64,000 nucleotides of DNA from the NCBI RefSeq assembly GCF_011947195.1, contig NZ_JAATVY010000008.1:124001-188000 (forward strand), read 5' to 3'. Within the stretch, counting starts at the first letter, position 1; every line of letters starts with the position of its first letter. Shown one piece after another: positions 10,298-57,039 of this stretch. This DNA comes from Planosporangium thailandense. GTDB taxonomy: Bacteria; Actinomycetota; Actinomycetes; Mycobacteriales; Micromonosporaceae. The translations under genes and the position numbers were made by a program. Under the pieces are notes generated by a model. The model made no database searches. It worked only from the letters and a program-made list of their open reading frames with translations, and had not been told where the DNA came from.

Positions 10298-10299
10298 GG

Positions 10300-15971: not shown

Positions 15972-16570
15972 TCCGATGCGACACCACCATGCGGAGAGAA
16001 GACGATGCTCGGAATACCCTCGTGAGCAGGGAAGACGAAGAGGCGGGCTGGCTGCGTTGGGGTCGACCTTAGAAAGCCGGCGTCAACCTGGCCCACCTAC
16101 TCCTCCGACTTCGCAACTTCGCCACGCCGATCGACCTGCATCGTGCTCCCGAACCCTGACAGCGTCCGACCCCGAGGGCAGCCGGTGACAGATGAGGCGA
16201 TCCCGCCTGGCCGGAGCCCGCCCGCCGCGACCATTCGGCCGAGGACGACGGATTCTGAGCAAACCCGAGGGGGGCCTCCTCGGATCGCGCCATCGGCGAC
16301 TGCCACGAGCGGGCCAGCACCGCGCGCCGAGGTGCCCTTCGCGAACTTGCCGACGGCCGGAATATTCGGGAAAACGCTGCGTGGCACTTACGAAGAGTAT
16401 CGACCTCAAGGCACAATCAAGACCGCCAATCAGCCGATCGAGTAGGCCAAAAGTACTATTTACACCCAAAGGGGCGGCGGCAAAGAGGCAAAACGGTCTC
16501 GCTGCAAGTGCCGCACCGCCCGTCGGTACGCTTCCAACCGGCGTGCGACGCAGGCGACTGGATGTGCCCG
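15972..16570. other. Gap between modification and restriction genes
   Basis: About 600 bp separate the dpdB stop from dpdE. Open frames here are short, arginine/glycine-rich and resemble nothing I know. The stretch around 16,440-16,490 is locally AT-rich (read on the minus strand it contains AAATAGTACTTTTGG) and could hold a promoter for dpdE-K, but I cannot point to a clean -35/-10 pair. Confidence 0.4.
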
Positions 16571-17677
16571 CTAAGAGAGCAGTCGGACGCGCCGCAACAG
16601 GTGATCCGTCAGCAGCCGAATGTCGTTCGGCGTGTTCTGCAGCGAGTTCCACCGCCGTTCGGTTCCGTCATCGAACGTCCAGGTCCCGGAGGTCCAGGCC
16701 GCTTCCGGCCACAGCTCAGCAAGGATTTTCTCGATCTTCTTGACCGGCAGGCGCCCCGCCTTGACGCCGTCGGTCAGCGCGTCCATGACGTAACCCATGG
16801 CTTGGATTCCGACCCCGTGCATCAGCCGGGACTGGCGCGGCAGCAGGCCCCAAGCGTCCGGGAAGCAGGCCTTGACCAGCGTCCAGAAGGTCTTCACGTG
16901 CTTCGCCATAGCGTCGACGTCGCCGGTTCCGGTGGCGGGATCGCGGTACTGGTACAGCGCGCCGTCGGAGAGGCTGTTTTCGAGCATCTTGAGGATGCTG
17001 TTGTCCTTGATCACGCCGTTCGGTGAGGTCGGCGTAGCGATTAGGCCCCAGAAGGGCGAGTCCTCGTCGAGGTTCAGCCGGGCGAGCACCTCGGCGGGAA
17101 GCCGTCGGCGGAGGTAGCGGACCGGTAGTTCGCCCTGGGTCGCCGGGAGTAGTTCGTGGATGAGGCCGGCCGGGAGCGGCTTGGTGGAGTTCACCAGGAT
17201 GAACTGCGACCGCTGTTCGGCATCACTGTCGGCAAGGAAACCGACGACGCAGAGCGGGAACTCGTCGATAGCGGCGTCGCGTACCGCCGCGGTGCGCTGC
17301 TGCCCGTCGACCAACCAGGCAGGCTTCTCGGCGTCGTCCCATGACTCATCGACGGGTACGATCAACTCGCCCAATTGCGCATACGAAACAGCGGCGCTGC
17401 CGGAGGCCGGTTCGAACCGGACCCGGTCGTCGAAGGCCACGACAAGCGCATTGGGCAGCATGGCGCCGGGTGATTCGAGGTAGCGGCGGATGGCCCGGAT
17501 ATGGCTGGTGACCTCTGGCCGCTGGTAGCCCTTCAGCGCGTGCTGCTGGTCCCGCCGTACCCGTGACACGGCCGTGAAGTCGGACAGCTTCTTGCCGTCA
17601 ACCGCGAAGGAGTAGATCCGGCGTTCACCTTGCCGAACTTCAAGAGCGGGCAGCACGAGTTCGTATCGGTCAGCCAC
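16571..17677 (-). CDS. dpdB: DpdB, DGQQR-motif protein (copy next to dpdA)
   Basis: A 368-residue protein of the DGQHR/ParB-like class, with VDGQQR centred on 124-128 and a downstream RSQFILVNSTKPLP segment. In the known dpd system DpdB works with DpdA and ATP to exchange guanine for preQ0 in DNA. GTG 17677 is chosen because GAGGAG lies nine bases upstream, it overlaps the dpdA stop by eight bases, and the residues readable upstream are low-complexity. Its C-terminal part (SRLMHGxGIxAMG, then a WTxGTW segment) matches the second copy at 18,921-20,069, so the two are full-length paralogues. Confidence 0.85.
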   Translation of the reverse strand: MADRYELVLPALEVRQGERRIYSFAVDGKKLSDFTAVSRVRRDQQHALKGYQRPEVTSHIRAIRRYLESPGAMLPNALVVAFDDRVRFEPASGSAAVSYAQLGELIVPVDESWDDAEKPAWLVDGQQRTAAVRDAAIDEFPLCVVGFLADSDAEQRSQFILVNSTKPLPAGLIHELLPATQGELPVRYLRRRLPAEVLARLNLDEDSPFWGLIATPTSPNGVIKDNSILKMLENSLSDGALYQYRDPATGTGDVDAMAKHVKTFWTLVKACFPDAWGLLPRQSRLMHGVGIQAMGYVMDALTDGVKAGRLPVKKIEKILAELWPEAAWTSGTWTFDDGTERRWNSLQNTPNDIRLLTDHLLRRVRLLS

Positions 17678-18911
17678 GGCTGCTCCTCGAGGTGACGGCG
17701 GACAGTCCGAGCTGGTGGACGCGTTCCGCGAAGACGGCAAGATTGTGGAAGCCGCGGCGCTTGTTGCGTTCTGTGCCACGGAAGATGACCAGTTCAACGC
17801 CGTGCTCAGCACACAGCGAGCATGGGCAGGCCGCCCAGGGCCGGTCGCCGAGGGTCCGAGCATAGTCGCCTAGGTACGACTTCTTGACCCCGAGGACCTC
17901 TTCGTAGTCGCCGAGCGCGCCCAGCACGGTGTCGAGGTCCGCGTCGCCTCGGTCGTAGGAGCGCAGCAACTTCAGGCACTGTTGTTCCGCAGCGATGGCC
18001 TCGCGTTGCGCAACGTGGCCGGCCAATACTCGACGCTTGAGGGCAACGTTGGCGTCAACCTGCGGCACTCGGACAGCCACGTAGGTGGTGTCAGCGGTCT
18101 GGTAGTTATCGCGGTCATCCATGAACGCCTGGCGGAACGGCGCGGTGCTGTCGAAGCTGGTGACACCGAGTTCAGCGAATCGGGCCATGTCTCGAACACG
18201 GGTGATGCCCAGCAGGTGCAGTTGCGGTCTGTCGATGTCCAGGGCCGCGATGGCCTCGAGGCAGGCAATGATGTCGGGGCTCTTCAGGGGCACCATGCCA
18301 CCCAGGGCGATCCGCTCGTATCCCATCTGATGCAGTTGGAGCACGCTGTCGGCATAGCTTTCCGGGCTCCAGCCCTGAGCGGCTCCAACAGGCTGGACAC
18401 GGCTCCCCCGCCGCTTGCCGGCCCGCAGAAAGTCCTCGGCGTAGCGCAGGGACACCTGCCGGCGCCGGACCCAATCCGGGTCGGCGGTGGCCTCGGTGCG
18501 GGCCGCGTCGTACTGGAAGACGACGTGGTCGACGCTCACACCGGCGTCGAACCCGCAACGCTCGTAGAAGTCGAGCACCTCGTCAACGGTGTAGGGCGGT
18601 TCATATTCATCGGCGTAGTTGAAGGCACCGCAGTCGCCGAGCGTGGCGACGCCGTCAGGGAGGCGGAAGAAGGTCCGAACCCCCAGCCGGTATAGCCGCT
18701 CGCGCTGTGCCGCCGTGTATTTGCCCGCGCCGCGCACGGAGCCGTCGACGATGGCCTTGCTGACCAGTATGCCGTCGTAGGGCCGTGGGGTTAACGCCTC
18801 GTGAGCGTACTGATCGTCACGCTGACGGACTCGGTACGGCGAGTACTCGTCGTGGACGAAGTCGTACGTTGGGCTGATCATGTCCTGGCTGTCAGGAAAG
18901 TAGAACTTCAT
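17670..18911 (-). CDS. dpdA: DpdA, DNA guanine transglycosylase (TGT-like)
   Basis: A 413-residue homologue of tRNA-guanine transglycosylase. DCGAFNY (93-99) and SVDH (126-129) carry the expected acidic residues. GGMVPLKS (204-211) and SFDSTAPF (252-259) fit the base pocket and second aspartate region. A C-terminal zinc site is seen at C362, C364, C367 and H389. In dpd systems DpdA swaps a guanine in DNA for preQ0, instead of acting on tRNA as TGT does. The start MKFYFPDSQD is the only plausible one, nine bases after the upstream dpdB paralogue. It is flanked on both sides by DGQQR proteins, which is unusual. Confidence 0.93.
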   Translation of the reverse strand: MKFYFPDSQDMISPTYDFVHDEYSPYRVRQRDDQYAHEALTPRPYDGILVSKAIVDGSVRGAGKYTAAQRERLYRLGVRTFFRLPDGVATLGDCGAFNYADEYEPPYTVDEVLDFYERCGFDAGVSVDHVVFQYDAARTEATADPDWVRRRQVSLRYAEDFLRAGKRRGSRVQPVGAAQGWSPESYADSVLQLHQMGYERIALGGMVPLKSPDIIACLEAIAALDIDRPQLHLLGITRVRDMARFAELGVTSFDSTAPFRQAFMDDRDNYQTADTTYVAVRVPQVDANVALKRRVLAGHVAQREAIAAEQQCLKLLRSYDRGDADLDTVLGALGDYEEVLGVKKSYLGDYARTLGDRPWAACPCSLCAEHGVELVIFRGTERNKRRGFHNLAVFAERVHQLGLSAVTSRSSRG

Positions 18912-18920
18912 GTCTGGCCT

Positions 18921-20069
18921 CTATGAGGTGCGCTGCGCCGCGGAGCGGGCCTGGATATGCGTACGGATGAGGAAGTTGGACAGTTCGTTGAGATGGCGGG
19001 GAACGTTTTCAAGATCGTTCCACCGCATTCCGAGCGCTTCCCAGGTTCCCTCGGTCCAGCGACAGTACGGAGCAATGAGTGCCAACTCCTCTCGCACTCG
19101 GCGCGGCGCGTCGGCACTTTGAGGATCAACGGTGGCCATGATGCGGTCCATGAGCCGGCCCATGGCGCGGATGCCAGTGCCATGCATGAGCCGACTCTGA
19201 GTGGGAGCCTTGCCCCACGCGCCTGGGAAGGTGTCGCGTACGGCGCTCCAGTACTGCACCAGGCAGGCCCACACGCCGCCGAAGTCGGTCTCCCCGCTGG
19301 TGAGGTTGCGGTATGGGAAGAGGCAGCCGGCGGAAGACTTGAGGCTCTCCTCGAGCATGTTGATGATGCTCGTGTCGGTGATGACTGCAGATCGCCGCTC
19401 CTCGGCGCCCGTCGACGGTCGCTTGATCAAGCCTTCGAATGGAGAGTCGTTGGCTTGGTTGAGTAGCTCACACAGCGCGGATGGGGTCTGTCGTAGCGAC
19501 AAGCGTGGCGGCAGCGGGGTGTCGATGGCCGGCAGCAGTTCGGTAACCAGCCCACGTGGTAGCGGTTTGCTGTTGTTGACCCGAACGAACTGGTCCCGTT
19601 GCAGGTCGACGGAGTCGGCCACGAAGGCATTCACTGGAACGGGAAAGTCATCTCGCTTGCAACGCGCCAAGGCAAGGGCACGCTGCTGGCCGTCGACGAT
19701 CCAGCCCGGCTTTGGCTCGTTCGGCTGGGGCAGCGGAATCTCTATGCTGCCCGCCACCGCCACCCCATCTGACACGTGCAGACCACGACTGCTGACGAAC
19801 TTCACCGACGACGGCAACGCGATGATGATCGAGTTCGGAAACAGAACGTCGTCGCCATCGAGATAGTCGACAATCTCCTGGACGTGCTGGCGGACCTCTC
19901 GACGCTGGTAGCCAATGAGCTTGCCGCCCTTGTCACGGCTGACCCGCGAGATGTCAGCGACCTCGAGGATCTCCCGGGCGGTCAAACTGAACAGGTAAAG
20001 CGGCGATCGCTGACTCTGCGTGATCCTCACCGCTCGGCGGCTCAGTACCGCGCTAGCGCGCGTGCCCAT
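18921..20069 (-). CDS. dpdB: Second DpdB-like DGQQR protein
   Basis: A 382-residue protein with VDGQQR (DGQQR at 126-130), RDQFVRVNNSKPLP, SRLMHGTGIRAMG and RWTEGTWEALG, all shared with the copy at 16,571-17,677. The two are clearly related but diverged, so this is not a recent tandem duplication. ATG 20069 has a GGGAGG site six bases upstream and overlaps the dpdC stop by 17 bp. Both copies keep the motif and full length, so neither looks dead. They may form a heterodimer around DpdA or set different sequence preferences; both ideas are inference. Which copy is orthologous to the characterised DpdB cannot be settled by eye. Confidence 0.82.
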   Translation of the reverse strand: MGTRASAVLSRRAVRITQSQRSPLYLFSLTAREILEVADISRVSRDKGGKLIGYQRREVRQHVQEIVDYLDGDDVLFPNSIIIALPSSVKFVSSRGLHVSDGVAVAGSIEIPLPQPNEPKPGWIVDGQQRALALARCKRDDFPVPVNAFVADSVDLQRDQFVRVNNSKPLPRGLVTELLPAIDTPLPPRLSLRQTPSALCELLNQANDSPFEGLIKRPSTGAEERRSAVITDTSIINMLEESLKSSAGCLFPYRNLTSGETDFGGVWACLVQYWSAVRDTFPGAWGKAPTQSRLMHGTGIRAMGRLMDRIMATVDPQSADAPRRVREELALIAPYCRWTEGTWEALGMRWNDLENVPRHLNELSNFLIRTHIQARSAAQRTS

Positions 20070-21021
20070 GGGCCCCTCCCACCAGGTCGCGGTAGAGCCG
20101 GTGGAAGCGATGCTGCTCGCACGCCAACTGGGAGTCACGAAGCGTCCGCAGGAGCCGGGTGGCTGACGCCTTGGGGTCAGCGGCCAAGCTCTGACTGATG
20201 TAGGCGGTGACCTCTGCGTCCGACAGCGGTTGCCGCGAAAACACGACGGGAGCAGGTTGCGTGCGGGCGAGCTCCGTCAGCGCCGCGGACGCGGCCGAGC
20301 GAGCGAGCGCACCTGCCTTGATCATATGGGCAGCCACCCGCACATTGATGCTCAGCTTCGATCCACCGAAGAGTCCTTGGAGGCGGCCGTCGGCTCGCAC
20401 GAGCAGATCGGCGATCGGTCCTGAACGCTCCGCACCGACAGAGACGACCATTAGCCGTTCGCTGTCATTGATCTTCTCGGCGGCTGTCAGTATGTCCTGT
20501 CGGCACGCACGCAGGTACGGCGGCGACAGCACCAGCAGAAAGGTGGCGTCCGGATCGGTTGCCGCGAGAGCGGCAATTGTACGGCTCGCACCGGGCATCG
20601 GGCCCGGCCACGTCGACAACTCTTGCCACCACTCGTCAGCAGTGATGGACGGCCCTATCACGGAGTCGGCATGGCCGGCAGCGAACGTCGCGGAGTACGG
20701 CATGATCGGCGCTTCGGCGGGGATCAGGCCGTAGCCTGCCGAGGCAACCCATAGCCGCGCCCCTCCTGGACCGGCGTGCAGGTCGGGAAGCGTTGTCGCG
20801 ATGGACCAGTGTTCGCCCGCATAGGTGTCCCGGGCCGCTTGGGCTGGCAGGTGGGGGATCGACAGACGACCAGTCCACCACTGGCGGCGTGCAGTCGGTG
20901 TCGAACCGGGCACCACGCCGAGGTGAAGTTGCGGCGGTACTTTCCGGGTCTTGCGGTTTGAGCAGGTCACCACGATATGGAGCCGCCCGCTGGCAGTACG
21001 TGCGGTTAACGGCTGTCCCAT
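20053..21021 (-). CDS. dpdC: DpdC, converts preQ0 in DNA to the amide (dADG)
   Basis: A 322-residue protein with an N-terminal VTCSNRKT (18-25) and SAGYGLIP (94-101), the signature pair of the YaaA/DUF6884-like fold. In the studied dpd system DpdC is needed to turn deoxy-preQ0 in DNA into 2'-deoxy-7-amido-7-deazaguanosine. Its presence predicts dADG as the main modified base in this organism. The start ATG 21021 overlaps the folE2 stop by one base (TAATG). The name rests on fold signature plus position between the preQ0 genes and dpdA/B. Confidence 0.8.
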   Translation of the reverse strand: MGQPLTARTASGRLHIVVTCSNRKTRKVPPQLHLGVVPGSTPTARRQWWTGRLSIPHLPAQAARDTYAGEHWSIATTLPDLHAGPGGARLWVASAGYGLIPAEAPIMPYSATFAAGHADSVIGPSITADEWWQELSTWPGPMPGASRTIAALAATDPDATFLLVLSPPYLRACRQDILTAAEKINDSERLMVVSVGAERSGPIADLLVRADGRLQGLFGGSKLSINVRVAAHMIKAGALARSAASAALTELARTQPAPVVFSRQPLSDAEVTAYISQSLAADPKASATRLLRTLRDSQLACEQHRFHRLYRDLVGGAHGHAR

Positions 21022-21851
21022 TACCCACGCCCAGACTTCGGAGCGGATGCGCCGACTGCGGTGGAGTAGATGCGTGCGTACGCCTCGTGGTTGTGGATAC
21101 TTTCGTCGTTGACCGCCTCCACGGAGAACCAGCCGATGCGGTCGTCCTTCCGCAGCGCGTCAGCTGCGTTGCGGACCATGTCTTCGACGAAAACGGGGTT
21201 GTCGAATGCGGCCATGGTGAGGTGACGCTCGTCGGGCCGTTTGACCAGCGGCCGCACGGGTGCCGACCCGCAGGCCTCACCGAGGTCGATGAGGTCGTCG
21301 ATCCAAACGGTTGCGGCTTGGCCTGCCGTAGCCGGTTTCACGGTCAAGGTGAGATGGCCGCGCTGGTTGTGGGCGCCGTAGTCGCTGATCGCTTTACTGC
21401 AAGGGCAGACACTGGTGACGGGAACGCGTACGGCCAGGCGCCACGTGACCTCGTCGCCCTGACTCTGTGCCACCAGGGTGCACTGGTAATCCATCAGTGC
21501 CCCTGCCCCGGTCACGGGCGCCGGTCGGTGTGAGAAGAACGGAAACGTGATCTCGATTCGCGCCCGGCCGGCGCGCTGGCGTTCCCGAATCTTGACGACC
21601 AGTTCAGCCACTGAAGACGGCCCCAGGGGGCTTCCCGCGGCATAGTCGCGAAGGTCTTCGACGAACCGGCTCAGGTGTGCGCCCTTGGTACTCGCCTCAA
21701 GGTCTACAGACAGCGAGAACTCTGCAATAGTCGACTGCTGCCCCTCGTCACGGTCCCAGACAGTGATCGGGTAACGGAGACCTGAGATGCCGACCTCGTC
21801 GATGGGGAGCCGGCGGTGATCCTGCCGCTGCTGCACGTCCTCGAGGTTCAT
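21021..21851 (-). CDS. folE2: GTP cyclohydrolase IB (FolE2)
   Basis: A 276-residue FolE2/COG1469 enzyme. It contains [20 protein letters not shown], the metal-binding cysteine and surrounding signature that separate type IB from the zinc-dependent FolE. It converts GTP to 7,8-dihydroneopterin triphosphate, the first step to preQ0. ATG 21851 is chosen over an upstream alternative because it overlaps the queD stop in an ATGA. A dedicated copy inside the island means base supply need not draw on the folate pathway enzyme. FolE2 tolerates metals other than zinc, a known family property. Confidence 0.92.
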
Positions 21852-22210
21852 GCCGCGGGCCCCCGGTAGATGCAGCCCGACGTGCACGTCTCACGGACAA
21901 CGATCTTCGACAGGGGCAACGCCGCAGCGAGCCGATCCCAGATCCACGCCGCCAGGTTTTCGCTGGTCGGGTTTTCCAGTCCTGGGACCTCGTTGAGGTA
22001 GTAATGGTCAAGCTGCTTGTCCAGCGGGGCCCACGCGGCCTTGAGTTCTGCGAAGTCCATCACCCAGCCGGCCGACGGATCCACCTCGCCACTGACGTAG
22101 ACCTCGACCCGATACGAGTGGCCATGCAGTCGCGCGCACTTGTGGCCTTCAGGTACCTGCGGTAGGCGGTGGGCCGCCTCGAAGGTGAACTCGCGGAAGA
22201 TCTCCATCAT
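21848..22210 (-). CDS. queD: 6-carboxytetrahydropterin synthase (QueD)
   Basis: A 120-residue member of the PTPS/QueD family. Zinc ligands are H14 (AAHRL) and H29/H31 (HGH); the catalytic cysteine is C25 in [10 protein letters not shown]. The C-terminal ETCTSGCIY carries the substrate-binding glutamate. It makes 6-carboxy-5,6,7,8-tetrahydropterin from dihydroneopterin triphosphate, step two to preQ0. ATG 22210 overlaps the queE stop; a second ATG follows directly. Short single-domain length is normal for QueD. Confidence 0.93.
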
Positions 22211-22854
22211 CGGATCCCTATGTACTTGTGAGTTTGGAGGCTGAGCTGCCACTGCGGGTGCGCAAGGCAGTACTCGATGGCAGCCTCAGTGTTCGCCGGC
22301 AGATCGGGCCCATCCATCGGCTGCAGTCGCAGGTGCGTGAAGTCCAGCTCGACGAACTGCTCCGGGTCCAAGCCCGGCTGCGGGAACACTAACTTCAGTT
22401 CGTCGCCGCTGGTCAGCACGAGATCAGCACCCGCCTTGGGGCTAACGCAGACCCAGTCGATCCCGGATGGTGCCGGCCGGGTCCCATTGGTCTCGATAGC
22501 AACCTCGAAGCCCTTACGGTGCAGCGCCTCGACGGCTTCGGCGTCGAGCTGCAACAGCGGCTCCCCACCCGTGCACACGACGTACGGTCGGCTGCGGGCA
22601 TGATCCTTGCCCTGCCACGTGCTCGCGATAGCTGAGGCGAGGTCGGCCGGACTGCTGAACCGTCCCCCGCCCGGGCCATCAGTGCCGACAAAGTCGGTGT
22701 CACAGAACTGGCATATCGCTCGATGCCTGTCAGACTCACGGCCAGTCCACAGATTGCAACTGGTGAAGCGGCAAAACACCGCCGGTCGACCGGCATGGCT
22801 GCCCTCACCTTGCAAGGTGTAGAAGATCTCCTTGACCCGGTACCGCGATCTCAC
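22207..22854 (-). CDS. queE: 7-carboxy-7-deazaguanine synthase (QueE)
   Basis: A 215-residue radical SAM enzyme. The iron-sulfur cluster motif is CX14CX2C (starting SCNLW and ending AICQFC), the expanded spacing typical of many QueE proteins. It is followed by TGGEPLLQ and ETNGT. It rearranges carboxytetrahydropterin to 7-carboxy-7-deazaguanine, step three to preQ0. GTG 22854 is preferred because it forms a GTGA overlap with the queC stop and puts the conserved [10 protein letters not shown] at the expected place. The 22 residues readable upstream lie inside queC. Confidence 0.93.
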
Positions 22855-23552
22855 TTCGCCGCTGCCAATGCGGGGTCCGTCAAACCGAGTTCGGCAAAGC
22901 CGCGACCGCGCAGCAGGCACGAGTCACAGGAGCCGCAGGCGCGCCCGTCGACCGGGTCGTAGCAACTGTGGGTCAACGAGTAGTCAACGCCAAGGTCAAG
23001 ACCGCGGCGAATGGTCTCCGCCTTCGTCAACTGGATCAACGGCGTGTGGATCTTCAGCTGTTGGCGGCCTTCGACACCCGCTTTGGTCGCGAGGTTAGCC
23101 ATCAGCTCGTAGGCGGCGATGTACTCCGGACGGCAGTCGGGGTAGCCACTGTAATCGAGTGCGTTCACCCCAATGAAGACGTCCGATGCACCGAGCGTCT
23201 CCGCCCAGGCAAGCGCGAACGACAAGAAGATCGTGTTGCGTGCCGGCACGTACGTAACGGGGATGTCCGAGCCGAGGTCGTCGACGCTGTCGTGATGCGG
23301 TACGGCGAGGTTGTCGTCAGTCAGCGCCGATCCCCCGAACACCCGCAGATCAATGTCGGCGACCACGTGCCGGGCGGCGCTCAGCGCACGCGCCACCCGT
23401 CCGGCAGCATCCAGTTCCACCGTGTGGCGCTGACCATAGCGGAAGCTCAAGGCGTAGGCGTCGAACCCCTCATTAACTGCAATGGCCAGCACGGTCGCGG
23501 AGTCGAGACCTCCACTGAGCAGGACAACTGCCTTGGGCTTCTCCGTCGCCAT
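22851..23552 (-). CDS. queC: 7-cyano-7-deazaguanine (preQ0) synthase (QueC)
   Basis: A 233-residue PP-loop enzyme with SGGLDS at 13-18 and a C-terminal zinc site (HSCYDP, then CGSCDSC). It makes preQ0 from 7-carboxy-7-deazaguanine, ammonia and two ATP. The conserved [11 protein letters not shown] is present. ATG 23552 has a GAGG about eight bases upstream. It is the first gene of the long minus-strand operon. With FolE2, QueD and QueE it gives the full GTP-to-preQ0 route. Confidence 0.95.
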
Positions 23553-23938
23553 CTACAGGCCTCTTCCTCTCCTGGTCGCGGTGAAACTGCGCCAACCCTT
23601 GCCATCAGTGGGCCGCACTTTCTGCCAAGAACGCCACTACGTTATCTACACGAGGGGTACGACGGAAAGGTCCCACGCCGCCAGGTTCGTCGAGATCTGG
23701 TGGTCAGCATGGGCTGCCCACGACCAGCAACGAGCCGACAGGCCGAGCGTCACGACGGGACGCATGTGGGCCACATCTCCCCCAGTAAGTGCAGCGCGGC
23801 GCTTGGAACTGCCGATGCACTTTCGGACTTCCCCATCTCGGCCGACAACGCACCTTACCGGGTCAGCCCTGTCGATGCGGTCGGCCCTGAACCCCGCCCA
23901 CCTTCAGGGTCGCCCGACCGGGCGGACCACCAGGCGAC
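23553..23938. promoter_or_regulatory. Divergent control region between queC and the XRE-ImmA pair
   Basis: About 390 bp with genes reading away on both sides, so it should hold the promoter of the dpd/que operon and that of the regulator pair. I see no consensus -35/-10 pair I would defend. AT-rich patches occur around 23,640-23,660 (GTTATCTACA on the plus strand). The best guess for ImmA/XRE control is an operator in this gap. Confidence 0.45.
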
Positions 23939-24709
23939 ATGAAGATCACCAGCGTGTCGGACTTGATTTTCCCAACATCAAACTGTGCCCCTGCTAGGTT
24001 TCAGCTCATGGATTTGCTGGGCGAGGCAGTCACGGTTCTCAGCGAGCGCGGTGTGCTAGGCCGGCTGGCGGAGTTGATCCAACAGGTCTACCGGCGGACC
24101 GCCGATCGGCACGAGCCCGACCTCGGCGACGACGCAATGAGCTTCGGCACCACCGTGTGGCGCAACCTGGTCAACCTCGGCGCCGCAGCCTTCCAGGACC
24201 TCCCGTGCGTGGAGACGCGCATCGAGGACAACTCGCTCGCGATCCTCTCTGCTGGGTACGTGCTGAGGCTGTATTCACTGCAAGGCGGCTTGGACAGCAA
24301 CGTGCAGTCCATCCGATGGGAGGGCAGTGAGGCCCGGCTCGGTGGGGCCGTGGAGAACAGCCAGGCCGAGCAGCTCGCCCTTGATGACGACGGGCAGTTC
24401 GGTCCCGCGTTCGTCGGCGTTGTTCCGCGCAAGCGGCACCTGCGAGTGGCGCACGCCGGCGACATCGCCACTGGCGAGGCAGTAGCCTACATCGGGCTAC
24501 CGCGCGACAACCGCGACGGTGGCTCGCCTTGGTTCGACGTACGACTGTGGTTCGGCGAGCCGACCCGCACCTCCGCCGCCTCATCTGAAAGCAGCGCGGA
24601 GGGTGAGATCCCGCGTCAGCGTCACGACGAGTTGCCCATCCCCGAACTCGAGATGCAGCTACGTCTCCGCCGAGGCGCCACTCGCACCGGCACCATCGTC
24701 AGTTCATGA
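23939..24709 (+). CDS. Unknown protein coupled to an XRE-ImmA regulator
   Basis: A protein of 256 residues if it starts at ATG 23939, or 233 from ATG 24008 (MDLLGEAVTVLSERGVLG). The shorter start is plausible, with helical sequence from the first residue, but neither start has a strong ribosome site. No motif is recognised; the C-terminal third is charged and likely flexible. Its stop overlaps the start of the XRE-ImmA gene (ATGA), so the two are made together. Such a pairing suggests the ImmA target, an antitoxin-like partner or a sensor. The function is unknown. Confidence 0.7.
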   Translation: MKITSVSDLIFPTSNCAPARFQLMDLLGEAVTVLSERGVLGRLAELIQQVYRRTADRHEPDLGDDAMSFGTTVWRNLVNLGAAAFQDLPCVETRIEDNSLAILSAGYVLRLYSLQGGLDSNVQSIRWEGSEARLGGAVENSQAEQLALDDDGQFGPAFVGVVPRKRHLRVAHAGDIATGEAVAYIGLPRDNRDGGSPWFDVRLWFGEPTRTSAASSESSAEGEIPRQRHDELPIPELEMQLRLRRGATRTGTIVSS

Positions 24710-25818
24710 CAGGTGGCGCACGGGGACCGGTGTCACCCACGGTGGCCGCGGCAGCGTTCCAGCCGCGGGCACTGTCACTAGCGCGGCGGTGGCGGCGGAT
24801 GCGCAAAAACGAACTCGCCCGGCAGGTCGGAGTGACGGCGGCAGCAATCAGCCAGTACGAACTCGGCCAGGTCCGCCCCTCGGCGGCAGTACTGGCCAGG
24901 CTGGCGCTGGCGTTGTCCATGCCTGTGGAGTTCTTCGCTGCGGCCTTCCCTGCGCCGGCGATGGCGGGGCAGGCCCACTTCCGCAGTTTGCGAGCTACTA
25001 GTCAGGCCGAGCGCGACCAGGCCGAGGCGTTCGGCGAGATCGCCCGCCGAGTCGTCGAGGTTATCGAGAGCCATATCCGGCTCCCCGAACTCCGACTGCC
25101 CCACCTCGACCTGCCCGACGCCTCCACTTCAGCCGACCTGCAAACCGTGGCCGCCTCAGCCCGAGACGCATTCAGCGTCGGTGCCGGTCCAGTCGGGCAC
25201 ATGGTCCGACTGCTTGAGGCCCACGGTGTGATCGTGCTGACCCTGCCTGAGGTTTCCGATCGGGTCGACGCCTTCTCGCACTGGTATGGCCAACGCCCGT
25301 ATGTGTTCGCCAGCCCGAGCAAGAACGACAAGGCACGCTCACGGATGGACGCCGCTCACGAACTAGCGCACCTGTTGCTGCACCACGACGCCGAACCCGG
25401 CAGCCAGATCCTGGAGCGGCAGGCCACTGCGTTCGCCTCCGAGTTCCTCGCCCCCACCAACGTGTTAGGCGACGAACTACCGACTCGGCTCGATTTCGAC
25501 CGACTGCACGAACTTAAGCGTCGCTGGGGCATCTCCCTTAAGGCGCTGATCTACCGCGGTCACGCCATAGGTGTCTACCGCGAGCACAGCTACCGCCGTG
25601 GCATGAACCTACTCGCCGAGTGGGGCGACCCCGAACCCGGCGACATCGGACCGCGCGAGACGCCATCGCTACTAGGCAAAGCTGTGGACCTGCTCGCCGG
25701 GCAACAGTTCAGCGTTCACGACGTAGCGGCGCAGACCACACTGCCGACCACACTGGTCCAAGCCGTTATCGAAGCCGGCAGCGACCCCCGACCGCGGTTG
25801 ACAATCACGGCCCTCTGA
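24706..25818 (+). CDS. XRE-family regulator with ImmA/IrrE metallopeptidase domain
   Basis: A 370-residue fusion. An N-terminal XRE helix-turn-helix (about 24-75, ELARQVGVTAAAISQYELGQ) is followed by an ImmA/IrrE-type zinc peptidase with HELAH at 218-222 and further acidic residues downstream. In ICEBs1 ImmA cleaves the repressor ImmR to switch the element on, and IrrE/PprI acts in DNA-damage responses. Position next to and divergent from the dpd operon suggests control of the island, perhaps on DNA damage or phage entry; this is inference. It could equally belong to the mobile element backbone. Confidence 0.85.
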   Translation: MTGGARGPVSPTVAAAAFQPRALSLARRWRRMRKNELARQVGVTAAAISQYELGQVRPSAAVLARLALALSMPVEFFAAAFPAPAMAGQAHFRSLRATSQAERDQAEAFGEIARRVVEVIESHIRLPELRLPHLDLPDASTSADLQTVAASARDAFSVGAGPVGHMVRLLEAHGVIVLTLPEVSDRVDAFSHWYGQRPYVFASPSKNDKARSRMDAAHELAHLLLHHDAEPGSQILERQATAFASEFLAPTNVLGDELPTRLDFDRLHELKRRWGISLKALIYRGHAIGVYREHSYRRGMNLLAEWGDPEPGDIGPRETPSLLGKAVDLLAGQQFSVHDVAAQTTLPTTLVQAVIEAGSDPRPRLTITAL

Positions 25819-25995
25819 ATGCAAATGGGACAACCCAGATGGGGTCTACCGGCAGGGAGTGCCTCGGCCCTTCCGGCTAGTCGAGAACTATGCTCGCGCA
25901 ACCGCGGCCGGCAACGACCGACACCGGGTAATGGTCGCGTGACCGCCCCGCCAACCGCTGCCGCACACCAGTCTGCTATCGAAGGAGTTCGCCGC

Positions 25996-26517
25996 TTGAA
26001 CACCCGCACCACGCTCGGAGCGGCCATCCTCGCCGCCTACATCGCCACGATCGGTGCCGCCAACTGGGCCGTCGCCCACCACGGGCCCATCCCCGTAGGC
26101 TTCGGCCAAGTCGCCCCCGCCGGCGTTGCCTTCGCCGGGCTCGCACTCACCCTGCGCAACGCAGCTCAAGACCTCGCCGGCCGCATTCCCACCGTCGCAG
26201 CGATGGCCGCCGGCACCGTACTCGCCTACGCCATCGCTACACCGACACTCGCCATCGCCTCGGCCGCCGCGTTCGGGTTTAGCGAACTGGCCGACTTCAC
26301 CGTCTACACCTGGCTACGGCGACGTCGCATGCTCGTTGCCTACAGCCTCGCCGCGACCGCCGGCCTTGTCGTGGACTCGGTGCTGTTTGTCGTCGTCGCC
26401 TTCCACACCTGGCGCTACGTGCCCGGTCAGATAATCGGCAAGGCCGAGATGACCGCCATCGCCCTCGCCGTCATCGCCGCCGTTCGCGGCGTCCGAACAC
26501 GGAAGGCGGCGGCCTGA
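25996..26517 (+). CDS. VUT/YhhQ-family membrane transporter (queuosine-precursor type)
   Basis: A 173-residue membrane protein with about six hydrophobic segments. The pattern AANWA...PVGFGQVAPAGVAFAGLALTLR, then SELADFTVYTWLRRR and VDSVLF, is that of the VUT (Vut_1) family. E. coli YhhQ of this family imports preQ0/preQ1. TTG 25996 is chosen: GAAGGAG lies eight bases upstream and the protein then starts at the first membrane segment. A GTG at 25939 lacks such a site. Similar genes occur in actinophages and conjugative elements without dpd genes, so a link to preQ0 is likely but not proven. It follows the XRE-ImmA gene by 177 bp. Confidence 0.78.
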   Translation: MNTRTTLGAAILAAYIATIGAANWAVAHHGPIPVGFGQVAPAGVAFAGLALTLRNAAQDLAGRIPTVAAMAAGTVLAYAIATPTLAIASAAAFGFSELADFTVYTWLRRRRMLVAYSLAATAGLVVDSVLFVVVAFHTWRYVPGQIIGKAEMTAIALAVIAAVRGVRTRKAAA

Positions 26518-26624
26518 AGACCTCCGTCCCGAGACGGCGGAACAGGCCGGAGATGAAGCGCGCTCGGCGTCAATTGGCTCTAGGACATTGCTCATCGGCC
26601 CCGTTCACTCACAGGTCCGGTCCC

Positions 26625-27027
26625 CGGTTCGGTTTCGTCGTTGGCGCCTCGATGATCGTGAACTCGGCTGCGGCCGTGCTTGTCTTCGGCGGCGCCAAGG
26701 ACGCGTCCGACCTTGCCATGTTCGGTCAGCTCGCCGGCGAGCGTGACGAGGTGACCGTGGTACGCGACGCCGACGGCAACGTCACGTCGACCAGCATGCG
26801 CCGGGTACCCGGTCATCGCCGCCTCGCACCTGGCCAGTTTGAAGAACCACCACGCCCTGCTCATCCGGCGCGGCATGCCGGTCGCGCTCGCCCGCACCCC
26901 AATCGCTTGGAAGCGTCGCGACGTGCGCCGGGCTGCGGCCGCCGACCGGAAGGCAGTTCGTGCCGCAGAGCGGGTGTCAGTGACTGACCCGCGCCCGGCC
27001 GACGCAGACGCGGAGGTGCCGGCATGA
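26625..27027 (+). pseudogene. C-terminal remnant of a conjugative coupling protein, frameshifted
   Basis: Two frames together read like the C-terminal TraM-recognition end of an actinomycete conjugative DNA-transfer ATPase. One frame gives VLVFGGAKDASDLAMFGQLA and then SMRRVP. About base 26,810 the frame must shift by one to continue VIAASHLASLKNHHALL and then IAWKRRDVR. The ATPase core is absent, so this is a truncated, frameshifted relic. Its stop overlaps the start of the next gene (ATGA), as expected for the original operon. Family identity is from memory of such sequences. Confidence 0.6.
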
Positions 27028-27602
27028 ACCGGCCAACGCCGGATCCGGCAGTCGTCGCGCTGGCTCGTGATGTCGAGCAGCTGCGCCGAGAGGTGGACCA
27101 GCACCGGGCCGAGATCGACCGCGCCCAGGAGACCGGCGACACCGCGCACCGGGTTATTGCTGACCTCGTGGACCGCGTGGCCGCGGTTGCCGACAACCGC
27201 CCGGTTGGCGCTGGCAATACCGAGGACGGCCGGCGTGTCGGCGTGGAGTCCTGGCTGGCCGCATCTCGACCCGCAGTTCTGGATGAACTCGTCGGGTGGA
27301 TGGACCAGGTACTCATCCACTACCCCGGCACCGCCGACGCGCTCGGTCAGTGCTGGTCCTTCCACCCCTGGATCGTCGAGGAGTTGTTAGCGCTCCGCGC
27401 CGCTTGGTCCGAGGCATACCAGAGCGACCGAGCGAGCGGATCCAGGGCAGTCGACTGGCACAAGCGCCATCGACCAGGCGTCATGACTCGAGTCGCCCAG
27501 GGCACGGCCGGGTGTTCGATCGAGGCCCACGAGCCCGGCGGCCGCCTCGACGTGCCAACCCCGCGCATTTCAGACGCTAATCGCCCCGCTCGTCGCACGT
27601 AG
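27024..27602 (+). CDS. Conjugation-associated hypothetical protein (DUF4913-like)
   Basis: A 192-residue protein with a short coiled coil at its N-terminus (about 10-45), then LDELVGWMDQVLIHY, CWSFHPWIVEELLALRAAW and VDWHKRHRPGV. Proteins of this pattern follow coupling-protein genes in actinomycete integrative conjugative elements, and I believe they match DUF4913; that label is recollection, not a search result. The start overlaps the stop of the coupling-protein relic. The gene itself looks intact and is the last plus-strand gene of the conjugation remnant. Confidence 0.65.
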   Translation: MNRPTPDPAVVALARDVEQLRREVDQHRAEIDRAQETGDTAHRVIADLVDRVAAVADNRPVGAGNTEDGRRVGVESWLAASRPAVLDELVGWMDQVLIHYPGTADALGQCWSFHPWIVEELLALRAAWSEAYQSDRASGSRAVDWHKRHRPGVMTRVAQGTAGCSIEAHEPGGRLDVPTPRISDANRPARRT

Positions 27603-27643
27603 GAAGACCCGCCAGTGAGCGCCAACCCAAAATGCCATCACGG

Positions 27644-28555
27644 TCATGGGATCGGACACGACCAGTCAACGACGTCACCCGAGTTCGTCGCCAGCACCAG
27701 CTCACCAGTCAATCGCGCCCTTCCAGCAGCGAGCTGCATCGCCTCTTCCAAAGAATTGTGCCGCTTGGCCGCCCGCTTTACTCCCGGAGCGTACTCGGGC
27801 CACTTCCCTCCATCGCGCACAATTCGGCGTATCTTTATGCTCAGCGCCTGACTTCTGACACCCCCAGAGCTTTGGACATACATTATATTCCGAAGTTTAA
27901 ATGAGGCGAGAATATCGACACACAGGCACACGATTTTAACATTCCGAGAAATCGTAGTAAGATTAGGTATTGGGATATTCGGATTTGCTGAGTGTGCGGC
28001 GATATGGCGCAACTCCGCAACCTCCTCGAACACGCGCTTCAGACTACTGTTTCCCGGAAACTGTTGATCAACCAACTGCCAGATTCGCGTCAAATCTGAC
28101 CACACTTTATTTCTTTCCACGCCAACAAGTGACGCAATTGACTCAATATCCGAAGACTGAACGTTGTATCCCGACCAGCTGAACGCAAGGGCATGCGGGA
28201 CAAAGATGCCGGTCGAGAGCGATGTGAGAGACTTTCCAACCTCGTCAAGGAGCGCCGACCGTTGCACAACATCTTGGTCGCGCAAACTCCTCGGCAGTAC
28301 TTCGATCAGTCGATCCTCGTACTGCTTGGTCCCACCCGGCAAACGCGACGGCGGCACTCTGGCGCCAGCTAGCGCAGATACCCACTCTCGCATTCGCGTA
28401 CGCAAGAAGGATTCAACACAGACGAGGCCATTGACCGCTATTCCTCGAATGAGGTGGTCCTGAATCTCCTGCTCGTTGAACGCTGGCTCACTAAGAGCGT
28501 CAATGGCCCGGTCAATTGCTCGAAGGCGCTGCAAGAGGTCGTCAACCGCGGCCAT
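27644..28555 (-). CDS. HEPN-domain RNase-like protein (DUF262 partner)
   Basis: A 303-residue protein with RHIAAH at 183-188, the Rx4H active-site pattern of HEPN RNases, in a helical context (VFEEVAELRHIAAHSAN). HEPN proteins often act as RNA-cutting effectors in abortive infection and toxin systems. It resembles the MAE_28990/MAE_18760-type HEPN group that is often paired with DUF262 genes; this is family recollection. It starts three bases after the DUF262 stop. Base composition is clearly more AT-rich than the dpd genes on its left or the chromosome on its right, which suggests separate acquisition. Confidence 0.75.
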   Translation of the reverse strand: MAAVDDLLQRLRAIDRAIDALSEPAFNEQEIQDHLIRGIAVNGLVCVESFLRTRMREWVSALAGARVPPSRLPGGTKQYEDRLIEVLPRSLRDQDVVQRSALLDEVGKSLTSLSTGIFVPHALAFSWSGYNVQSSDIESIASLVGVERNKVWSDLTRIWQLVDQQFPGNSSLKRVFEEVAELRHIAAHSANPNIPIPNLTTISRNVKIVCLCVDILASFKLRNIMYVQSSGGVRSQALSIKIRRIVRDGGKWPEYAPGVKRAAKRHNSLEEAMQLAAGRARLTGELVLATNSGDVVDWSCPIP

Positions 28556-28558
28556 GGT

Positions 28559-29611
28559 TCACTCCGCCGCGACAACAGTCAGCAGATCGCGAACGAATTC
28601 AATCCGTAGCCGAACACGTGACGGTGTGTTCGTTCCAATTCGCACAGCTGCGTCGAAATCGGGATCACCGAAGAGGTCAACCATTGCATCAGTTGCTCTT
28701 TTCTTACGCCTCTTCACAATTTCAAGCGTGTCATCAGAGACCAGGGCGCAAGCAACCATTTGTGCGTCATAAACGCCACCTATCATCTGGTCGCGCCAAT
28801 AACCGGAATCGTAGCGCTTGAATGCCAACGATCCCCAGATGTCCCTGCATGCCGATATCGCCCGAGTAAATCGTTCCCCATACCTTTCGACGTCACGCGG
28901 TAGCGCCTCGTAATTCTTCAACATGAAATCGTCTAGGGTAGAACGCAAACTTCCGCTGAAGCTTTGCCAATTGCTCGACAACGCCAGGAAGCGGAGAACA
29001 TACTCAACGTCCAGCATGGCAGCATATGCGGGCGAAGCCGACGACCGAATTTTCAGCTGCTGGCGGAGAAACTTGTCATTCGCCAGTTCGATGATCATAT
29101 CATTTAGGGGCCCCGCAAAGGCCACATTACGAACCTCTTGGGCATTGAGCGGCTGCCCGCCAGTGTTAAGTCGAATAAAGACTTCGTACTTCATCCATTC
29201 GGGCGTCTGCCGCATCACCGTAACGGCACGCAGGGGACGCATATTAAGGGTGCTCTGCAGAGCGGGCGACAACTCTTCAAAGGACAAGCCATCCAAGTCG
29301 GGCAGGAAGACGAGCGACGTAAGCCGGATCTCATTATTCAAGAATTTCGCGATAGCTGTCAGACGCTGTTTGCCATCGATTACTGAGAACTTGCCGCGTC
29401 GCTCCTCCGCCAAATACACAGGCGGCACTGGAACGTTCAAAATGAAGGACTCGATTAGGCGGCTCTGCCTGTCCCGTTCCCATCGGTTGCGCCTCTGGAA
29501 CCGTGGACTCAGATCGAGGGCGCCAGAGCTCGCCAACGCCGAAACGTTCATGAGCGCCATGTCGCTCGATTGAACGACGAGGTCGCCCATATTCCACTCT
29601 GCCTCGGCCAC
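28559..29611 (-). CDS. DUF262-domain protein (ParB/Srx-fold)
   Basis: A 350-residue protein with PRFQRRNRW (36-44), the typical DUF262 front, and VIDGKQRL around 77-84, equivalent to the DGQQR motif of ParB-fold nucleases/NTPases. In GmrSD-type enzymes the DUF262 domain senses or cuts modified DNA with NTP use. GTG 29611 is preceded by AAGGGG at a good distance. It is the first gene of a two-gene operon with the HEPN protein downstream, which makes this a candidate sensor-effector defence pair. A DNA-modification-sensing role next to a DNA-modification island would be notable but is inference. Confidence 0.8.
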   Translation of the reverse strand: MAEAEWNMGDLVVQSSDMALMNVSALASSGALDLSPRFQRRNRWERDRQSRLIESFILNVPVPPVYLAEERRGKFSVIDGKQRLTAIAKFLNNEIRLTSLVFLPDLDGLSFEELSPALQSTLNMRPLRAVTVMRQTPEWMKYEVFIRLNTGGQPLNAQEVRNVAFAGPLNDMIIELANDKFLRQQLKIRSSASPAYAAMLDVEYVLRFLALSSNWQSFSGSLRSTLDDFMLKNYEALPRDVERYGERFTRAISACRDIWGSLAFKRYDSGYWRDQMIGGVYDAQMVACALVSDDTLEIVKRRKKRATDAMVDLFGDPDFDAAVRIGTNTPSRVRLRIEFVRDLLTVVAAE

Positions 29612-29652
29612 CGTGTCCCCTTCATGATCTTGCCCGTAGGTCGTGGAGGGAG

Positions 29653-29681
29653 CGTATCGCGTATCGACCTTTGCTAGTCAA
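29653..29681 (-). promoter_or_regulatory. Candidate promoter of the DUF262-HEPN operon
   Basis: On the minus strand TTGACT (29,681-29,676) and GATACG (29,658-29,653) are separated by 17 bp. The -35 matches five of six consensus bases and the -10 matches three. It lies 42 bp upstream of the GTG at 29,611. Confidence 0.5.
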
Positions 29682-29997
29682 GCAAACGACAACTTCGCCA
29701 GCGCTCAACATCGCCGACTCACGAATAGGAGAGCAACTTGGCCGGCAAACTATGGGCCACGGAGACAGTTGGTCGACAGGGAACCAGGATGCCGCCGAGA
29801 GCCTGTCCGCCCACAGTTTCGCTGGCCGATCAAGCCGACCATGACGGAGCGCTCGTTCAGCACTGTGAGTAGTTTGGCGTCCTCGACGCATCTAGTCTTG
29901 GGGCAACACTTAACCCCACGCCTCGCCGGCGAGGCAGGCTCCGGGAGCAGCAAGATCCGTCCGAACGCCGCGGCCGTAGGTTGGATCGGGTCGTGCC

Positions 29998-30168
29998 ATC
30001 CCCTCCCCTGCCCTAAGGGGATGCCCGACAACCTGCCGGACCGCAAGGGACAGGCCGCTCCGCGGTCGGGCTTCGCCCGATCCCTTGCGCCCCGGCAGAA
30101 CGCCGGGCATGTCGATGACCAGGCGACGGGACGGCACCCCAGCCCGTACTGTGCGGGGAGGTCCGCAC
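29998..30168. other. Cluster of inverted repeats near the island end
   Basis: Four stem pairs occur within 170 bp: ATCCCC/GGGGAT (29,998/30,017); GCAAGGGA/TCCCTTGC (30,043/30,081) enclosing CGGGC/GCCCG (30,067/30,075); CCCGGC/GCCGGG (30,091/30,102); and GTGCGG/CCGCAC (30,151/30,163). A competing pair GACCGC/GCGGTC (30,039/30,062) could rearrange the second stem. No gene is evident between 29,700 and 30,350. This density suggests an oriT, a replication origin or a structured RNA of the mobile element; which one cannot be told from sequence alone. Confidence 0.5.
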
Positions 30169-30242
30169 ACCCACCCACGCAACTCTCGGTGACTGGCAGC
30201 CGGCTCCCCTGCAGGCCGCCAGCGGCCCTCAGGAAACCAGGA

Positions 30243-30301
30243 CCGTGGAGCTATTCGTGGAGCGAACTACAGCCCACCCGCGTCGCCAGAGTCCGTGGAG
30301 C
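30243..30301 (+). repeat. Three CGTGGAGC direct repeats beside the att site
   Basis: CGTGGAGC occurs at 30,244, 30,256 and 30,294, all in the same orientation and within 120 bp of the tRNA-derived attachment site. Short direct repeats next to a core site are typical integrase arm-binding sites. Confidence 0.4.
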
Positions 30302-30358
30302 CAACCCGACCGCCGCTAAAGTTCAAGGTAGAAGCCACGGTCAATCCGGAGGACCTCA

Positions 30359-30400
30359 CTTCTAATCCTAAGGTCGCAGGTTCGAATCCTGCCGGGCGCA
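30359..30400 (+). mobile_element. Attachment site: 3' part of tRNA-Arg(TCT)
   Basis: These 42 bases match the 3' half of a tRNA-Arg with a TCT anticodon loop. They give CTTCTAA (30,359-30,365), a T-arm of GCAGG/TTCGAAT/CCTGC (30,376-30,392), then the acceptor strand CGGGCGC and discriminator A. The 5' half is missing: the sequence before the loop does not pair with TCCTA, and no GCGCCCG acceptor strand is found at the right distance. It is therefore a duplicated 3' end left by site-specific integration (attR), not a functional tRNA. With this orientation the element lies to the left and the intact tRNA beyond the left edge. Confidence 0.75.
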
Positions 30401-30456
30401 CGCATACCGCCAGGTCAGTCGCCGGGCCGCTGACGGACGGTTCCGCCACACTGCCT

Positions 30457-30478
30457 GTACAGCCATTCGTACAGCCAT
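30457..30478 (+). repeat. GTACAGCCAT direct repeat right of the att site
   Basis: GTACAGCCAT occurs at 30,457-30,466 and again at 30,469-30,478 (12-bp period), between the tRNA-derived core and the integrase relic. It may be an integrase arm site of the element on the right. Confidence 0.35.
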
Positions 30479-30563
30479 CAGCCGAACAGATGCTCTGTCA
30501 CGGCGTCGGCCGAAGCCCGCTCGATCTCGGGGGAGCACGTGCACGTACATGCTGACCTTGGCT
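30478..30563 (-). pseudogene. C-terminal relic of a tyrosine integrase
   Basis: On the minus strand one frame reads AKVSMYVHVLP; after a one-base shift in a run of five C it continues PEIERASADAVTEHLFG and stop. This is the usual end of actinomycete phage/element integrases (the catalytic tyrosine of TYxHVLPE is the Y here). The rest of the gene is not recognisable in the 200 bp upstream. The extra C and the lost N-terminus make it non-functional. It sits about 80 bp right of the att core. Confidence 0.55.
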
Positions 30564-30772
30564 CGGAGCGCGTGCCAACTTCGGTCAAGGCACCCCGAAA
30601 GCGCGGCGGTTGAAACCAACATGCCTTCGGCGGCCCTCCCCTCTGCCATCGACCAGGCGAAACGGAGCAGACCGTCACCCGGGGCCGCCAGCGTCCGTAA
30701 GCCGCTCCCCAGTCCGCGCATCGTGGCGGCCCCGGAGCTGGCCCGCTCCCCGAAGGGCTAGGTTCTGACGCC

Positions 30773-34698: not shown

Positions 34699-37092
<2,394 letters not shown>

Positions 37093-57022: not shown

Positions 57023-57039
57023 AGGAAGAAGGGTGCTTC

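What the first reader, a model, noticed from the sequence alone, without database searches (positions are those of the whole stretch)
30359..30400. tRNA-Arg(TCT) 3'-end duplicate marks the right end of the island
A 42-nt tRNA 3' half without a 5' half is the usual right attachment site of an integrative element. Its orientation puts the element, and hence the dpd genes, on the left. It predicts an intact tRNA-Arg(TCT) ending in the same 42 bases left of this window, with an integrase nearby. This explains how the dpd system reached this chromosome.
Basis: partly seen in the sequence, partly recalled or inferred. Interest (0 to 1): 0.6.

Follow-up and report, generated by a model that had tools for sequence, protein, structure and literature searches.

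The report
Right end of a tRNA-borne defence island
A broken half of a tRNA gene marks the far end of a 54,000-base inserted DNA element that holds a whole DNA-modifying phage-defence system in an actinobacterial chromosome; its other end, with the intact tRNA gene and an integrase gene, was found where it was predicted.

Summary
The same contig carries one other copy, 54.4 kb to the left (24 kb outside the window). It is an intact tRNA-Arg(TCT), with a 494-aa tyrosine integrase starting 79 bases past its end and pointing into the island. The dpd cluster lies between the copies, beside a MOBF relaxase and a coupling protein. New evidence ties both ends to this integrase: paired arm repeats with 12-bp phase lie just inside each end, the right pair 93-94 bp from the core, here and in five other elements with related integrases. 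In same-genus G001 the chromosomal flanks lie about 2 kb apart. Same-genus G002 holds a decayed relative with pieces of the integrase and of the right end.

Two corrections. The DNA right of the repeat is not native chromosome but begins with the relic of a pSAM2-like element; shared chromosome resumes at about 37.4 kb. And that dpd arrived with the element, rather than being gained later, is likely but not shown: related elements are 12-16 kb and carry no dpd. A new member of a known kind.

The parts
30358..30401 (+). attR core: copy of the tRNA-Arg(TCT) 3' half; 42 nt identical (30358-30399), from the 5' edge of the anticodon loop to the acceptor end
   Evidence: no tRNA here by ARAGORN
30244..30263 (+). 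right-arm pair of candidate integrase-binding repeats (CGTGGAGC twice, 12 bp apart), 94 bp before the core; a third CGTGGAGC at 30294-30301
   Evidence: right pair 93-94 bp from the core in 6 of 6 related elements
29921..30096 (+). element right-end segment, 86% identical to a piece in the decayed relative of the element in same-genus genome G002
   Evidence: of 61 genomes only G000 and G002 have it; two further matches of 29-30 bp are trivial
1..30399 (.). right 30.4 kb of the 54.4-kb element. The rest lies outside the window on contig C93: tRNA-Arg(TCT)/attL 99915-99991, integrase 100070-101554, HTH_17 ORF 112730-113032, TrwC relaxase 115515-119870, TraG/D coupling protein 119846-121963. The window is C93:124001-188000
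1..683 (-). DpdD (ORF starts in the window and ends outside it, C93:122530-124683)
   Evidence: NF041061, 442 bits over cut-off 300
680..1285 (-). DpdK
   Evidence: NF041068 over cut-off
1207..5631 (-). DpdJ
   Evidence: NF041067 over cut-off
5624..6361 (-). DpdI-like
   Evidence: NF041066, E 4e-10, 40 bits, cut-off 150
6312..9638 (-). DpdH-like
   Evidence: NF041065, 390 bits, cut-off 450
9392..10459 (-). DpdG-like
   Evidence: NF041064, 75.5 bits, cut-off 80
10300..13116 (-). DpdF
   Evidence: NF041063 over cut-off
12834..15971 (-). DpdE
   Evidence: NF041062 over cut-off
16571..17863 (-). DpdB, first copy
   Evidence: NF041060 over cut-off
17670..18911 (-). DpdA, 7-deazaguanine transglycosylase
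   Evidence: NF041059 over cut-off
18921..20138 (-). DpdB, second copy
   Evidence: NF041060 over cut-off
20053..21021 (-). DpdC
   Evidence: PADLOC DpdC, E 2e-73; no Pfam or NCBIfam match
21021..23552 (-). preQ0 synthesis block: FolE2, QueD, QueE, QueC
   Evidence: Pfam and NCBIfam
23939..25818 (+). RmrT / RmrA-like pair (RmrA with M78 peptidase and HTH domains)
   Evidence: PADLOC, Pfam
28559..29611 (-). GmrSD_N-domain protein (NsnA / PD-T4-2_A-like)
   Evidence: Pfam, PADLOC
30402..30616 (-). relic of the left end of a pSAM2-like AICE next to attR: last 19 residues of its integrase at 30481-30537, a doubtful further piece at 30548-30616; 30358-30547 is 86% identical to G002 DNA that begins in its tRNA
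   Evidence: first piece E 2e-4, second only E 0.2

Best explanation
Window 30358-30401 is the attR of a 54.4-kb integrative element inserted in the 3' half of tRNA-Arg(TCT). The tyrosine integrase next to the intact tRNA (attL) recombined a circular form of the element with the tRNA gene. The exchange took place within the 42-bp identity between the anticodon loop and the 3' end. The element supplied the new tRNA 3' half at attL, and the displaced old 3' half became the repeat seen here. Paired arm repeats just inside both ends are the likely integrase-binding sites. The element holds a dpd modification/restriction system, further defence-like genes, a MOBF relaxase and a coupling protein, so it is probably mobilizable, using another element's transfer channel. 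It went in beside a pSAM2-like element, whose decayed left end now follows attR. Shown: both ends, intact tRNA, integrase, arm repeats, gene content, insertion relative to relatives. Inferred: the recombination itself, integrase binding to the arms, present mobility, and arrival of dpd together with the element.
For: Two core copies at up to 3 mismatches in the assembly, on one 242-kb contig. Intact tRNA at the left copy, none at the right. The integrase (PF00589, 71 bits, over cut-off) starts 79 bases past the tRNA on the same strand. Arm pairs GTGGNNC-N5-GTGGNNC occur on the element's strand only at its two ends, the right pair 94 bp from the core; five other elements with related integrases show the same plan (one with another repeat word), the right pair at 93-94 bp, and no such pair was found in the flanks examined, 7.6-45.6 kb each. 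The right-arm pattern occurs in 5 of 299 genomes, once each, always at such an end (the pattern was derived from these five). Second core copies were found in 6 of 9 integrase-family regions examined. The integrase family sits next to tRNAs: 200 bp or less in 25 of 30 unnamed-genome loci and 22 of 28 named loci; the nearest upstream tRNA is on the same strand in all 52 loci that have one. Left and right flanks overlap by 44 bp in G002; in G001 the tRNA and the shared right chromosome are 2.1 kb apart. G002 also holds, past a second core copy, an integrase piece (3 stops) and the right-end segment, in the same order. In G037 a related integrase and a TraD relative (49%) lie within 6 kb.
Against: Related elements with both ends found are 12.4-16.4 kb. 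In the G122, G159, G113, G009 and G038 (C226) regions none of the other 38 element proteins searched matched at over 60 bits, except one 29% GmrSD match in G038, so this element is 3-4 times larger with cargo of other origin. Third-position GC is 0.86-0.89 for relaxase and coupling protein but 0.69-0.80 for the 13 dpd-block genes that the caller picked. Pseudonocardia dioxanivorans CB1190 has a related integrase beside tRNA-Arg(TCT) but no second core copy within 2 mismatches. Three further regions (G072, G037, G045) show no second copy before the contig ends. The G002 relic keeps no right-hand core copy of 14 nt or more. No VirB4-like gene was found among the ORFs scanned.
Confidence: 0.9

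Rival explanations
1. The boundaries are right, but the dpd block was not part of the element that integrated. A 12-16 kb element came first and dpd with its neighbours was gained later in place, by nested insertion, recombination or accretion with loss of an inner att site.
For: Related elements are 12-16 kb without dpd; composition is mosaic; an rve/IS481-like transposase lies near the left end; of 299 relatives only G000, G072 and G038 have both an integrase match and DpdA, in the latter two on different contigs.
Against: No inner core copy at up to 3 mismatches, no second PF00589 match on this contig, no inner arm pair on the element strand; relaxase, coupling protein and one small gene sit directly beside the dpd genes.
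Confidence: 0.25
2. The right repeat is the end of a different, unrelated element at the same tRNA (tandem accretion), so the integrase at the left end and this repeat are not partners.
For: Two elements in tandem do occur at this tRNA: an AICE relic follows the repeat, and G002 has a full AICE here.
Against: The arm pair before the repeat has the sequence and the 93-94 bp spacing seen with this integrase family in other elements; G002's relic has the same integrase piece and the same right-end piece in the same order.
Confidence: 0.05
3. The repeat is a chance match or a local tRNA duplication without any element.
For: Many tRNAs share the T-arm motif.
Against: 42-nt identity to one tRNA only, 0 of 100 shuffles for its 30-nt end, and the element evidence.
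Confidence: 0.01

Closest known systems
dpd island of Salmonella enterica Montevideo (7-deazaguanine DNA modification)
   Same: dpd cluster on a genomic island next to a tRNA gene; it 'integrates near tRNA-Leu' (PMC6159554, passages read)
   Different: Other host phylum, other tRNA, an integrase family of Actinobacteria; here both att sites, arm repeats and a relaxase are seen
Actinomycete integrative and conjugative elements (AICEs, pSAM2 type)
   Same: Tyrosine integrase, tRNA 3'-end att site; tandem insertion in a tRNA-Arg gene is known (Sav3708/Sav3728; PMC3218068, passages read); one such AICE sits at the same tRNA in G002
   Different: No RepSA or FtsK/SpoIIIE match in the ORFs scanned of this element; it has TrwC and a VirD4-like protein instead
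T4SS-type ICEs of Actinobacteria with a MOBF (TrwC) relaxase
   Same: TrwC relaxase plus VirD4-like protein in an element with tyrosine integrase; the type is treated in PMC3218068 (passages)
   Different: No VirB4-like match among the ORFs scanned, so probably mobilizable rather than self-transmissible

Membership tests
tRNA-targeting integrative element (tyrosine integrase) | direct repeat of the tRNA 3' end at both ends | tested here: met
tRNA-targeting integrative element (tyrosine integrase) | intact tRNA at one end, integrase beside it | tested here: met
tRNA-targeting integrative element (tyrosine integrase) | site without the element in relatives | tested here: met
   G002 joins the two flanks at the tRNA (its right flank is the end of an AICE); G001 has tRNA and shared chromosome 2.1 kb apart. 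No wholly empty site was seen in the three same-genus genomes searched (G003 is too fragmented to tell)
tRNA-targeting integrative element (tyrosine integrase) | arm-type repeats at both ends, shared with relatives | tested here: met
   binding itself not tested
tRNA-targeting integrative element (tyrosine integrase) | excision to a circle | not testable with these tools
   no reads or bench
AICE (pSAM2 type) | RepSA-like or Prim-Pol replication protein and FtsK/SpoIIIE translocase | tested here: not met
   none in the ORFs chosen from C93:100-154 kb; small or miscalled ORFs may be missed
T4SS-type ICE (MOBF) | TrwC relaxase and VirD4-like coupling protein | tested here: met
   PF08751 140 bits, NF041492 over cut-off; PF12696 65 bits
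T4SS-type ICE (MOBF) | VirB4-like ATPase and transfer channel | tested here: not met
   no such match in the ORFs scanned
dpd system | DpdA, DpdB, preQ0 synthesis genes, and the other dpd genes C-K | tested here: met
   DpdG, H and I match below the NCBIfam cut-offs, DpdC by PADLOC only

The most novel reading that the evidence does not exclude
A family of actinobacterial tyrosine integrases, many with a GntR winged helix fused to the C-terminus, shares a fixed attachment architecture: core from the anticodon loop to the tRNA 3' end, and 12-bp-phased arm pairs at both ends with the right pair 93-94 bp from the core. It uses many different tRNA genes and carries cargo from 12 to 54 kb. The fused GntR domain is a built-in regulator of integration or of transfer genes, and one such element moves a whole dpd system between hosts.
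Probability: 0.3. Interest if true: 0.5.

Novelty: new member of a known kind. Interest (0 to 1): 0.4.

Why it matters
It turns a dpd cluster of unknown origin into the content of a delimited element with known ends, integrase and relaxase, so that transfer of a DNA-modification defence system becomes testable. The shared end architecture gives a handle for finding further elements of this integrase family in Actinobacteria.

Tried and rejected
Considered and rejected: chance match; tRNA duplication; right repeat belonging to another integrase; element as a pSAM2-type AICE (no RepSA/FtsK in the ORFs scanned); integrase of a known phage or plasmid (tblastn: 349 phage and 59 plasmid records match, all under 60% identity, none over 80% of the query, the rows listed 24-32%).

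Led nowhere: CB1190 has no second core copy within 2 mismatches. The arm pattern found no further element beyond those it was made from. The DNA alignment of right ends was mis-oriented for at least three of its five rows and was not used. Whether other dpd clusters in relatives lie in such elements could not be settled. For the 11 other DpdA genomes the fetched stretches (17-40 kb each) show no close member of this integrase family beside dpd, only a 25%-identical integrase next to QueC in G066. In the five dpd stretches that hold a tRNA, no repeat of it lies downstream. The base at tRNA position 73 was not used to place the crossover, as it varies among relatives.

Full report
OBSERVATION. 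Window 30358-30399 reads ACTTCTAATCC...GGGCGC and is identical over 42 nt to the 3' half of tRNA-Arg(TCT); the finding's coordinates are one base off. ARAGORN finds no tRNA in the window. Its last 30 nt occur once in the window at up to 3 mismatches and in none of 100 shuffles. In the 7.01-Mb assembly, which comes without a name (98.5% complete, 114 contigs), the 42-nt string has two places at up to 3 mismatches: C93:154360-154401 (this one) and C93:99948-99989. The window is C93:124001-188000.

PREDICTION TEST. The left copy is an intact tRNA-Arg(TCT), C93:99915-99991. A 494-aa tyrosine recombinase starts 79 bases past its end on the same strand, C93:100070-101554, with PF00589, an N-terminal SAM-like domain and a GntR winged helix at residues 430-493. 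The residues that I recall as the tyrosine-recombinase active site (R, K, HxxR, H, Y) look present in the translation; the motif is recalled, not tested. The distance between the copies is 54.4 kb and both lie on one contig of 242 kb.

CONTENT. Between the ends lie the integrase, a DUF6308 protein, an rve/IS481-like transposase, HNH, HD, NUDIX and GGDEF proteins, an HTH_17 protein (a domain that I recall as common in excisionases), a TrwC/MobF relaxase of 1451 aa, a TraG/VirD4-like protein of 705 aa, and then the dpd block. That block holds DpdD, K, J, I, H, G, F, E, two DpdB, DpdA, DpdC, and FolE2, QueD, QueE, QueC. DpdG, H and I score below the NCBIfam cut-offs, and DpdC was named by PADLOC only. 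An RmrT/RmrA pair and a GmrSD_N-domain protein lie towards the right end. No RepSA, FtsK/SpoIIIE or VirB4-like match came from the ORFs that I chose; not every small ORF was scanned.

INSERTION. Same-genus G002 carries the left flank up to the tRNA (C7:101600-99623) and, overlapping it by 44 bp, the DNA that follows attR in G000 (C7:99666-99473), so the two flanks are joined there without the element. In G001 the tRNA is 2.1 kb from the chromosome that G000 shows from C93:166004 on. The G000 DNA just after attR is not native chromosome, however. In G002 it is the left end of a pSAM2-like AICE with integrase, RepSA and FtsK proteins, which ends at a further core copy 13.4 kb on. G000 keeps the last 19 residues of that integrase at window 30481-30537 (74% identical, E 2e-4). 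DNA shared with the G002 chromosome resumes at window 37373. Beyond its second core, G002 holds a piece of the G000 integrase with three stops and a piece of the element's right end (window 29921-30096, 86%), in the same order. The relic shows no right-hand core copy. That right-end piece occurs in no other of 61 genomes apart from two trivial matches of 29-30 bp. So two element families share this tRNA, in opposite order in the two genomes. Tandem AICEs at a tRNA-Arg are described for Streptomyces avermitilis (PMC3218068, passages).

BOTH ENDS BELONG TO THIS INTEGRASE. The 8-mer CGTGGAGC occurs five times on the element's strand: twice in the first 130 bp and three times in the last 130 bp; two copies on the other strand lie elsewhere in the element. 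A paired motif with 12-bp phase lies at both ends of G000, G122, G159, G113 and G009 (as an overlapping triplet in G009), and a different pair (TGGGCATG) with the same phase at both ends of G038. The right pair ends 93-94 bp before the core in 6 of 6. Same-strand pairs lie only at the ends. G000 has one opposite-strand match inside, and none was found in the flanks examined, 7.6 to 45.6 kb each. The motif was found by eye in G000 and then looked for in the others, so it is post hoc; its fixed spacing in elements of 12 to 54 kb is the strong point. The 22-position pattern made from five of these matches 5 of 299 genomes, the same five, once each, and its reversed control none of the 299. The G038 integrase match stops before the GntR tail but its element still has arm pairs, so the tail is not needed for such arms.

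FAMILY. 41 of 299 genomes, this one included, have an integrase match at E 1e-30 or better, some of them fragments. Of 30 loci held from that search, 28 have a tRNA upstream, 25 within 200 bp; of 28 named loci (Pseudonocardiaceae and other actinomycetes) 24 have one, 22 within 200 bp; the nearest upstream tRNA is on the same strand in all 52. The two sets may overlap. The tRNAs vary: Arg of four anticodons, Met, Thr, Ser, Ala, Lys, Leu, Glu, Pro, Val. The tblastn match reaches the end of the GntR tail (query residue 485 or more) in 35 of the 58 loci (my count). Second core copies of 42-46 nt starting at the anticodon loop were found in 6 of 9 regions; in the other three the contig ends 8.6-14.7 kb past the tRNA. 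CB1190 has none.

HOW DPD CAME HERE. DpdA occurs in 12 of 299 genomes, this one included. None of the other 11 dpd stretches fetched shows a close relative of this integrase beside dpd. Two of those genomes, G072 and G038, have integrase and DpdA on different contigs. In this sample, then, dpd is seen in such an element only here, and whether it came with the element or was added in place is open. The relaxase and coupling protein close beside the block, and the lack of inner att sites, favour joint arrival. A dpd cluster near tRNA-Leu is known in Salmonella Montevideo (PMC6159554, passages); the original report (Thiaville 2016) is not held and is known to me by recall and by its citation there. 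Searches for dpd islands, for a GntR-fused integrase and for dpd on actinobacterial elements (seen as listings, apart from the passages named) showed no report of this combination, which is weak evidence of absence.

VERDICT. It is a new member of a known kind, with well-defined ends; interest is moderate.

Noticed in passing
C93:100070-101554 (left of the window; L003:12070-13554): The integrase carries a GntR winged helix fused to its C-terminus. Of loci with a tRNA upstream, 24 of 32 whose match reaches the tail sit at tRNA-Arg (1 at Met), against 2 of 20 at Arg and 10 of 20 at Met for those whose match does not (my count, fragments included, relatedness not corrected for).
   Followed up: partly
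window 34699-37092: 797-aa ABC-type ATPase, weakly UvrA-like, between attR and the shared chromosome, with copies 84-89% identical in DNA on other contigs of G001, G002, G018 and G024; it may move on its own.
   Followed up: no
window 27024-27602 and C93:121960-122562: Two small proteins at the two sides of the dpd block match the same places in G037 and G072, so they look like paralogues.
   Followed up: no
window 23939-25818 and 28559-29611: Further defence-like genes (RmrT/RmrA, NsnA/PD-T4-2_A-like) towards the right end make this look like a multi-system defence island.
   Followed up: no
window 56851-57034: c-di-AMP riboswitch (RF00379, 76 bits) in the chromosome right of the island.
   Followed up: no
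L150 (G038:C126), dpd region: In G038 the dpd genes lie close to a tRNA-Arg(CCG), another possible tRNA-bound dpd island; no repeat of it was found downstream in the stretch held.
   Followed up: partly
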